Source of the DNA: a virus
Strand: one strand, 5' to 3'
Length of the DNA stretch: 64,000 bases
IMG/VR virus record: IMGVR_UViG_3300050821_018050
Span: 62,001 to 126,000 of that record
Made by a program: the position numbers and the translations under genes. Positions 39,884 through 57,566 of this stretch are shown piece by piece. The notes under the pieces were generated by a model. That model was not told where the DNA came from, did not search any database, and saw nothing but the letters and a program-made list of their open reading frames with translations. Position 1 is the first letter of the stretch; every line of letters starts with the position of its first letter.

Positions 39884-39912
39884 ATTATATCACATATAAG
39901 CCCAAAGGTCAA
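39884..39912 (-). promoter_or_regulatory. Consensus sigma-70 promoter for block B
   Basis: Minus strand: TTGACC, 17 bp ending TGA, TATAAT, 6 nt (TGAGGT), ATG at 39877. Back to back with the CCTAATATT motif at 39915. Confidence 0.8.
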
Positions 39913-56272: not shown

Positions 56273-56635
56273 TTAATAATCCTCTTCGAGAAATGTGTTG
56301 ATCCAAATCTGATTATCCTGGTAGGTTAATCCGGTAACTTTAAGCTGAGATGCGTTTCCCCATTTAGATGCCCAAACTGGTGTTTTTGAATTATAAGTAA
56401 ATTCTCCACCTTTATATCCAGTAAATTCTTTACCATTTAATGCTTCTTCAAGTTGTGCAATTAATGTACCAACCGTATTAAAATCGTTTGTTGTGGGTAC
56501 CAGAGCCACATGGTCGTAATAGCCTCTATAACTGCTAATGTCGCCTAAATTAACGGTTTCACCGTAATATTTGGTAACTACTGGATAATTAAGATTAAAT
56601 TTTTTGAGTTCATCTACAAGTTGTCCTAATCTCAT
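56273..56635 (-). CDS. Conserved-type protein, 120 aa
   Basis: MRLGQLVDELKKFNLNYPVV, DISSYRGYYDHVALVP, TVGTLIAQLEEALNGKEFTG, YKGGEFTYNSKTPVWASKWG. I recall the S-x-R-G-Y-Y-D and G-Y-K-G-G-E-F-x-M/Y motifs from a widespread uncharacterised phage family. Function unknown. TAATG with the upstream micropeptide. Confidence 0.8.
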   Translation of the reverse strand: MRLGQLVDELKKFNLNYPVVTKYYGETVNLGDISSYRGYYDHVALVPTTNDFNTVGTLIAQLEEALNGKEFTGYKGGEFTYNSKTPVWASKWGNASQLKVTGLTYQDNQIWINTFLEEDY

Positions 56636-56748
56636 TATTTTTCCTTCCTGCCCCGAATTCTATATGAGGCGTCCATGGCAGCTAATACAACATTAGATCC
56701 TATTAACAGGAAAATAGAAAGACCGGGGTGCTGTAAAAAGAATTCCAA
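56635..56748 (-). CDS. Membrane micropeptide, 37 aa, TTG start
   Basis: TTG after AAAGG. MEFFLQHPGLSIFLLIGSNV: one span, basic end RGRKEK. First gene of block C, behind the structured leader. Confidence 0.6.
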   Translation of the reverse strand: MEFFLQHPGLSIFLLIGSNVVLAAMDASYRIRGRKEK

Positions 56749-56767
56749 TGGCTACCTTTCAAAAGTT

Positions 56768-56858
56768 AGGCGCTAGAGTCCGCTTGGATTGGTCTGCCAC
56801 CCAATAACTTCGAAAGGGGGATTAAGAGGTGAGGTAGCAGACTTGCACTCCAGCGCCT
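56768..56858 (-). ncRNA. Structured RNA or leader with anti-Shine-Dalgarno-like loop
   Basis: Read on the minus strand, 91 nt. Nt 1-12 pair with 80-91 and nt 17-26 pair with 58-67; each helix needs one G-U pair on this strand but an A-C mismatch on the other, so the minus strand is the folding one. The 31-nt terminal loop holds UCACCUCUUA, close to the 16S rRNA end UCACCUCCUUA. The predicted start of transcription from 56865 falls on nt 1. Could be a 5' leader of block C or a free small RNA. No tRNA fold. Confidence 0.6.
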
Positions 56859-56864
56859 ACAATA

Positions 56865-56893
56865 AGAATACCATGGATTTGGCAGAAAAGCAA
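56865..56893 (-). promoter_or_regulatory. Sigma-70-like promoter for the RNA and block C
   Basis: Minus strand: TTGCTT, 17 bp ending TGG (extended -10), TATTCT, 6 nt, then the first base of the structured RNA (56858). Confidence 0.65.
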
Positions 56894-56905: not shown

Positions 56906-56914
56906 CCTAATATT
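56906..56914 (+). promoter_or_regulatory. CCTAATATT motif, candidate late promoter for the fibre operon
   Basis: Exact nonamer only 7 nt before the ATG at 56922 (5 nt with TTG 56919), so this mRNA would be nearly leaderless. Confidence 0.6.
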
Positions 56915-56921
56915 TCAATTG

Positions 56922-57566
56922 ATGTCTGTTCAAAAAGTGGATTCCCTTATCATCGGTAAAGGGGCGATTAATTCTAATGCCCAATCAGCTCAAATCTTCG
57001 CTTCAACGCTGGCTGTAGGCGTTTATAGCGCTTCTACGTCGTATGTGGATCAGGCATGTGTTGAATATTCCGGTGCTATTTATCGTTCTATAGGCGGCTC
57101 TAATCTGGGCAATACACCTTCTTCGAGCCCTACTGTTTGGGAAGTCATAATCAAAACGATTCAAGACGGAGATGCGTGTTTTGTCGTAAATAGTGGGAAT
57201 TCTGATTTACAGATCCGATTAAACGGCGTTTGGTCATCCTTTGGCGGCAAACCATACAGTCTCTCTTTAAACGATAATCAGACATCACCGATTGCGGCCT
57301 TTAGTTATCCAGGGTCTGCGATGCCATATGCCATTTTAGAGGTTCGCGTCCGAAGAAACAACGGATTCTCTTCAGCAAAAGTTTACACATACAATGTTGT
57401 GACCGATGGGTCTAACGTGCAATATTCCTCATCTGGTGTTGACCTTGGAGTTGATACGGGAGTTACTTTTACCGTCGCCATAGTTACCGGTCAAGTTCAA
57501 TTCCAATATACATCCACTAACTTAGGTCAAAGCATTCAACTTGACTATAGCATAAAAGGATTTTAA
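56922..57566 (+). CDS. Tail fibre or fibre-attachment protein
   Basis: 214 aa from ATG 56922 (a TTG precedes it). Residues about 35-78 hold a carbohydrate-binding-like module (GVYSASTSYVDQACVEYSGA, then YRSIG and W). From about 110 to the end is a beta-sandwich that recurs in the next fibres (LSLNDNQTS, DLGVDTGVTF, VQFQYTST). First gene of the fibre operon. Confidence 0.7.
   Translation: MSVQKVDSLIIGKGAINSNAQSAQIFASTLAVGVYSASTSYVDQACVEYSGAIYRSIGGSNLGNTPSSSPTVWEVIIKTIQDGDACFVVNSGNSDLQIRLNGVWSSFGGKPYSLSLNDNQTSPIAAFSYPGSAMPYAILEVRVRRNNGFSSAKVYTYNVVTDGSNVQYSSSGVDLGVDTGVTFTVAIVTGQVQFQYTSTNLGQSIQLDYSIKGF

What the first reader, a model, noticed from the sequence alone, without database searches (positions are those of the whole stretch)
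56768..56893. Structured RNA that starts at a predicted +1 and shows a 16S-tail-like loop
Seen: a 12-bp plus 10-bp imperfect hairpin whose wobble pairs only work on the minus strand, beginning exactly at the +1 of the 56865 promoter. The loop sequence UCACCUCUUA differs by one missing C from the 16S 3' end. Inference: a leader or small RNA that could bind purine-rich ribosome sites as a decoy anti-SD; since many array genes lack such sites, this could favour them.
Basis: partly seen in the sequence, partly recalled or inferred. Interest (0 to 1): 0.7.

Follow-up and report, generated by a model that had tools for sequence, protein, structure and literature searches.

The report
Leader hairpin of a phage operon
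A strong RNA hairpin sits between a putative start of transcription and the first small gene of a minus-strand operon in an uncultured phage; it is most likely an ordinary messenger leader structure, and nothing found supports the idea that it is a decoy for ribosome-binding sites.

Summary
The hairpin is real. Minus strand 56862-56765 folds at -40.9 kcal/mol (z -4.8; 1 of 12,000 shuffles as good), 24 pairs in two helices, 55% G+C in a 40% G+C genome. Three wobble pairs work on the minus strand only. A sigma70-like site (TTGCTT-17-TGG-TATTCT, 56893-56865) puts +1 at about 56858, the hairpin's base, but sites that good occur about once per 0.8 kb.

On the plus strand a recurrent late-promoter-like motif, CCTAATATT (18 plus, 0 minus copies), lies at 56906, downstream of the hairpin and just before the tail-region gene at 56922. 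So the hairpin should be transcribed only leftward, as a roughly 110-nt leader of a 37-aa membrane ORF and a 120-aa accessory gene.

The nearest relative with this junction (55% amino-acid identity) has the divergent promoters but neither hairpin nor accessory gene. No homologue was found in Rfam, phages, plasmids, IMG/VR or GTDB genomes, so covariation cannot be tested. The 16S-tail resemblance is one 10-mer match, binds canonical Shine-Dalgarno sequences more weakly than 16S does, and is partly paired.

Best reading: a lineage-specific 5' leader hairpin affecting mRNA stability or translation. Ordinary. The late motif and leaderless array promoters are more interesting by-catch.

The parts
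56765..56862 (-). imperfect two-helix hairpin (24 pairs, internal loop 4 x 12 nt, apical loop 29 nt)
   Evidence: MFE -40.9 kcal/mol, z -4.78
56865..56893 (-). sigma70-like promoter TTGCTT-17-TGG-TATTCT (extended -10), expected +1 near 56858
   Evidence: consensus only; relative G003 has TTGACT-17-TGG-TATAGT in the corresponding gap
56823..56832 (-). apical-loop string UCACCUCUUA resembling the 16S 3' tail (its complement on + reads TAAGAGGTGA, SD-like)
56753..56758 (-). Shine-Dalgarno-like GAAAGG shortly before the TTG start
   Evidence: sequence
56635..56748 (-). 37-aa ORF (TTG start, hydrophobic stretch then basic tail), stop overlaps next ATG
   Evidence: no Pfam match
56273..56635 (-). 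120-aa accessory gene, phrog_12889 (unknown function), SD AAGGA
   Evidence: absent from G002, G003, G004 and Mx1
56906..56915 (+). late-promoter-like motif CCTAATATTT, 6 bases before the ATG of the 56922 gene
   Evidence: the same motif before the orthologous gene in G003
56922..57566 (+). 214-aa tail-region protein, orthologues in G002, G003, G004

Best explanation
The element is the structured 5' leader of a leftward (minus-strand) accessory operon. Host-type RNA polymerase starts near 56858; the first ~90 nt fold at once into a long two-helix hairpin whose base lies at the 5' end; an SD-like GAAAGG and a TTG start follow about 20 nt later. The hairpin most likely protects the 5' end from 5'-end-dependent decay and/or sets the translation level of the first ORF. 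Shown: the hairpin's predicted stability and position, strand bias in wobble pairs, gene layout, the late motif downstream of it on the other strand, absence in relatives. Inferred: that the minus promoter fires, and the stabilising or translational role.
For: Fold far below shuffles on the minus strand, weaker on plus. G+C 55% against 39% and 29% in its flanks. The best minus promoter-like site of the region ends seven bases from the hairpin base. The promoter position corresponds to a stronger minus promoter in the same divergent gap of G003, next to a shared AAATATTAGG block. The plus-strand late motif lies downstream of the hairpin, so plus transcripts from it exclude it. Stabilisation of bacterial mRNA by 5' secondary structure through blocked RppH/RNase E access is established (PMC3997798).
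Against: No transcript data; promoter score of a kind found about once per 0.8 kb. No homologue, hence no covariation test. Most strong array promoters of this phage look leaderless, so a structured leader is the exception. The host and its RNA decay enzymes are unknown.
Confidence: 0.45

Rival explanations
1. The inverted repeat has no RNA role: it is a neutral or DNA-level feature (remnant of the insertion that brought the accessory genes, or a protein-binding or recombination site in a divergent promoter region).
For: Both strands fold; wobble bias could be chance (1 in 8); whole-contig significance is modest; no relative has it and the neighbouring gene is lineage-specific.
Against: The minus-strand fold is clearly the better one; the position at a promoter-like +1 and just ahead of an SD-like site fits a leader. 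The outer repeat orientation does not fit integron attC sites (my reading of the sequence, from general knowledge).
Confidence: 0.3
2. A cis-acting translational operator or attenuator: a phage protein or ligand binds the hairpin and controls the 37-aa ORF and the 120-aa gene, as T4 gp43 and gp32 bind leaders of their own mRNAs.
For: Large structured leader directly before an SD-like site; such operators are known in T4 (PMC3014915). In the predicted leader fold the GAAAGG is mostly paired.
Against: No Rfam match even at E up to 10; no conservation in relatives; no candidate binder.
Confidence: 0.17
3. A discrete small RNA of about 100 nt ending at the hairpin, with the loop acting in trans as a decoy anti-SD.
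For: UCACCUCUUA in the loop; a weak T-rich stretch (UAACUUUU) follows the stem.
Against: The T stretch is poor and the terminator scan found nothing there; weaker pairing to canonical SD than 16S, and part of the string is paired; no conservation; array genes without SD are explained by leaderless starts.
Confidence: 0.03

Closest known systems
5'-terminal stem-loops that stabilise bacterial mRNAs (ompA, papA type; reviewed in PMC3997798)
   Same: stem begins at the presumed 5' end, followed by the ribosome-binding site
   Different: longer (about 90 nt) with a large apical loop; no transcript or stability data; phage of an unknown host
Leader and translation-initiation-region hairpins of T4 mRNAs (genes e, soc, 43, 25, 38; PMC3014915)
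   Same: phage RNA structure next to a start codon
   Different: here the main hairpin lies upstream of, and does not contain, the SD and start; no known ligand; the opposite strand carries the late-promoter-like motif
Promoter-early stem-loop cassettes of T4-type phages (recalled; not found in the paper library)
   Same: promoter directly followed by a stem-loop at an accessory-gene site
   Different: no terminator-like short loop and U tract; a single copy in this genome

Membership tests
5'-terminal mRNA-stabilising stem-loop | helix within a few nt of the 5' end | tested here: inconclusive
   predicted +1 about 56858 at the helix base, consensus-based only
5'-terminal mRNA-stabilising stem-loop | transcript half-life falls when the stem is opened | not testable with these tools
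   needs an infected host or a reporter
Known Rfam family (tRNA, riboswitch, ribozyme) | covariance-model match | tested here: not met
   no match at gathering score or at E up to 10; ARAGORN none
Conserved structured RNA | homologues with compensatory changes | tested here: inconclusive
   no homologue in G001-G004 or Mx1, phages, plasmids, viral or genome contig patterns
Decoy anti-Shine-Dalgarno RNA | accessible loop that pairs with SD at least as well as 16S | tested here: not met
   -7.4 versus -10.7 kcal/mol on AAGGAGG; -13.1 versus -17.3 on UAAGGAGGUGA; loop partly paired
Intrinsic terminator / discrete sRNA | G+C-rich stem with short loop followed by U tract | tested here: not met
   one search lists none here; the loop is too large for that scan, and the tail is only UAACUUUU

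The most novel reading that the evidence does not exclude
A phage small RNA whose loop imitates the 16S 3' tail and sequesters SD-led mRNAs during infection, favouring the phage's own leaderless array genes.
Probability: 0.02. Interest if true: 0.75.

Novelty: new member of a known kind. Interest (0 to 1): 0.18.

Why it matters
As a leader hairpin it adds one more orphan phage 5' structure. It would matter only if shown to act in trans on translation. The surroundings matter more: a strand-specific late-promoter-like motif and apparently leaderless array genes give a testable picture of transcription classes in a poorly known phage group distantly related to Myxococcus phage Mx1.

Tried and rejected
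tRNA, tmRNA, riboswitch or ribozyme: no match. Repeat elsewhere in the genome: none. Integron attC site: the GTTAGGC/GCCTAC ends sit the wrong way round for attC (reading of the sequence). Plus-strand leader of the tail gene: the late motif at 56906 lies downstream of it. SD on the plus strand (TAAGAGGTGA) for the 38-aa TTG ORF at 56843: possible but unsupported. Hairpin travelling with the phrog_12889 gene: in the annotated regions around homologues in five other phages the gene lies next to another gene, within about 110 nt at most, so no comparable leader gap. Single-sequence covariance model: only itself at a significant E-value. My first promoter score for the site (4.7) scanned the wrong offset; the right value is 6.3. 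More relatives by protein profile: only the three already known.

Full report
What the window is. The window is bases 62001-126000 of a 159.8-kb IMG/VR tailed-phage record. Its baseplate J-like protein finds only Myxococcus phage Mx1 in the named phage collection (34% identity). In IMG/VR it finds one identical fragment (G001) and three relatives (G003, 160.6 kb, 62%; G002 and G004, 48%).

The observation. Minus strand 56862-56765 folds into a two-helix hairpin at -40.9 kcal/mol, z -4.78, matched by 1 of 12,000 dinucleotide shuffles; the plus strand is weaker (z -2.39, 175 of 12,000). All three non-Watson-Crick pairs are G-U on the minus strand and A-C on the plus strand. In my rough gene map it is the most stable minus-strand window outside genes for its G+C content. 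The hairpin is 55% G+C against 39% and 29% in its flanks. Shuffles of the whole 286-nt gap reached its energy 3 times in 720. I take it as probably selected, with the caution that a 160-kb contig offers many chances.

The promoter. The best sigma70-like site on the minus strand between 56640 and 57500 is TTGCTT-17-TGG-TATTCT at 56893-56865, which puts +1 at the hairpin base. Alone this is weak: 82 sites score as well on that strand of the window, about 53 in shuffles. The relative G003 has the same divergent gap, with a shared AAATATTAGG block and a strong TTGACT-17-TGG-TATAGT site pointing left, which supports a leftward promoter here by position. G003 has no hairpin there; its first leftward gene starts a few bases after the promoter.

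The other strand. CCTAATATT occurs 18 times on the plus strand and never on the minus strand of the contig pieces held. Most copies lie 5-26 nt before a start codon on the plus strand, mainly of structural genes, and the motif also stands before the orthologous gene in G003. I read it as the phage's late promoter (inference). The copy at 56906 is 6 nt before ATG 56922, so late transcripts should start downstream of the hairpin and not contain it.

What follows the hairpin. Leftward come GAAAGG (56758-56753), a TTG-started 37-aa ORF with a hydrophobic stretch, and, overlapping its stop, a 120-aa gene of phrog_12889. The 120-aa gene is absent from G002, G003, G004 and Mx1 but has weak homologues in unrelated phages, so this end of the array is a lineage-specific acquisition. 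In the annotated regions around five of those homologues there is no comparable long leader gap.

Search for kin. Rfam found nothing at gathering scores or at E up to 10, ARAGORN nothing. BLAST against phages and plasmids gave only short chance matches. Pattern scans of IMG/VR and of 84,980 GTDB genomes gave nothing. A covariance model from the single sequence found only itself at a significant score in G000-G004, Mx1 and 30 loci. Covariation therefore cannot be assessed.

The anti-SD idea. UCACCUCUUA is in the apical loop, one C short of the 16S tail. Strings within one edit of UCACCUCCUUA number two on both strands of the contig pieces, no more than a rough chance count of about five. It pairs less well than 16S with canonical SD sequences (AAGGAGG -7.4 versus -10.7; UAAGGAGGUGA -13.1 versus -17.3), better only with its own exact complement, and part of it is paired. 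The fact it was meant to explain, array genes without SD, has a simpler cause: six of the eight best array promoters (score at least 7.5) have ATG 5-6 nt after the -10, which predicts leaderless mRNAs; at a threshold of 7.0 there are six of ten, against a mean of 0.3 in shuffles.

Conclusion. The hairpin is best read as a lineage-specific 5' leader structure of a leftward accessory operon, protecting the mRNA's 5' end or tuning translation, as 5'-terminal stem-loops do in E. coli (PMC3997798) and leader structures do in T4 (PMC3014915). Transcription and function are inferred, not shown.

Noticed in passing
window + strand 1265, 4104, 14739, 39915, 56906, 62352; also L020, L021, L022, L024, and L028/L040 of relative G003: CCTAATATT occurs 18 times on the plus strand and 0 on the minus strand of the contig pieces, mostly 5-26 nt before a start codon: a probable late promoter unlike T4's TATAAATA.
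   Followed up: partly
window - strand, -10 boxes ending at 39884, 37721, 29208, 25955, 24457, 18959: Strong sigma70-like promoters, most with extended -10, in the small-gene array place ATG 5-6 nt after the -10, predicting leaderless mRNAs for individual array genes.
   Followed up: partly
L033 79-1440, minus strand (relative G003): Leftward array of 45-60-aa ORFs whose C termini share a pattern such as WVVKYV, YVVRYD, YGITYE, FEFTYE: looks like a tandem family of small paralogues.
   Followed up: no
L035 1415-1490 (relative G002; same in G004): A different, plus-strand structured leader precedes the SD AGGAGG of the orthologue of the 56922 gene; no Rfam match.
   Followed up: partly
L022 14760-14854, minus strand: Single tRNA-like gene with a long variable arm; ARAGORN calls Ala (TGC), the loop could also be read as Ser (GCT); not an Rfam gathering match.
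   Followed up: no
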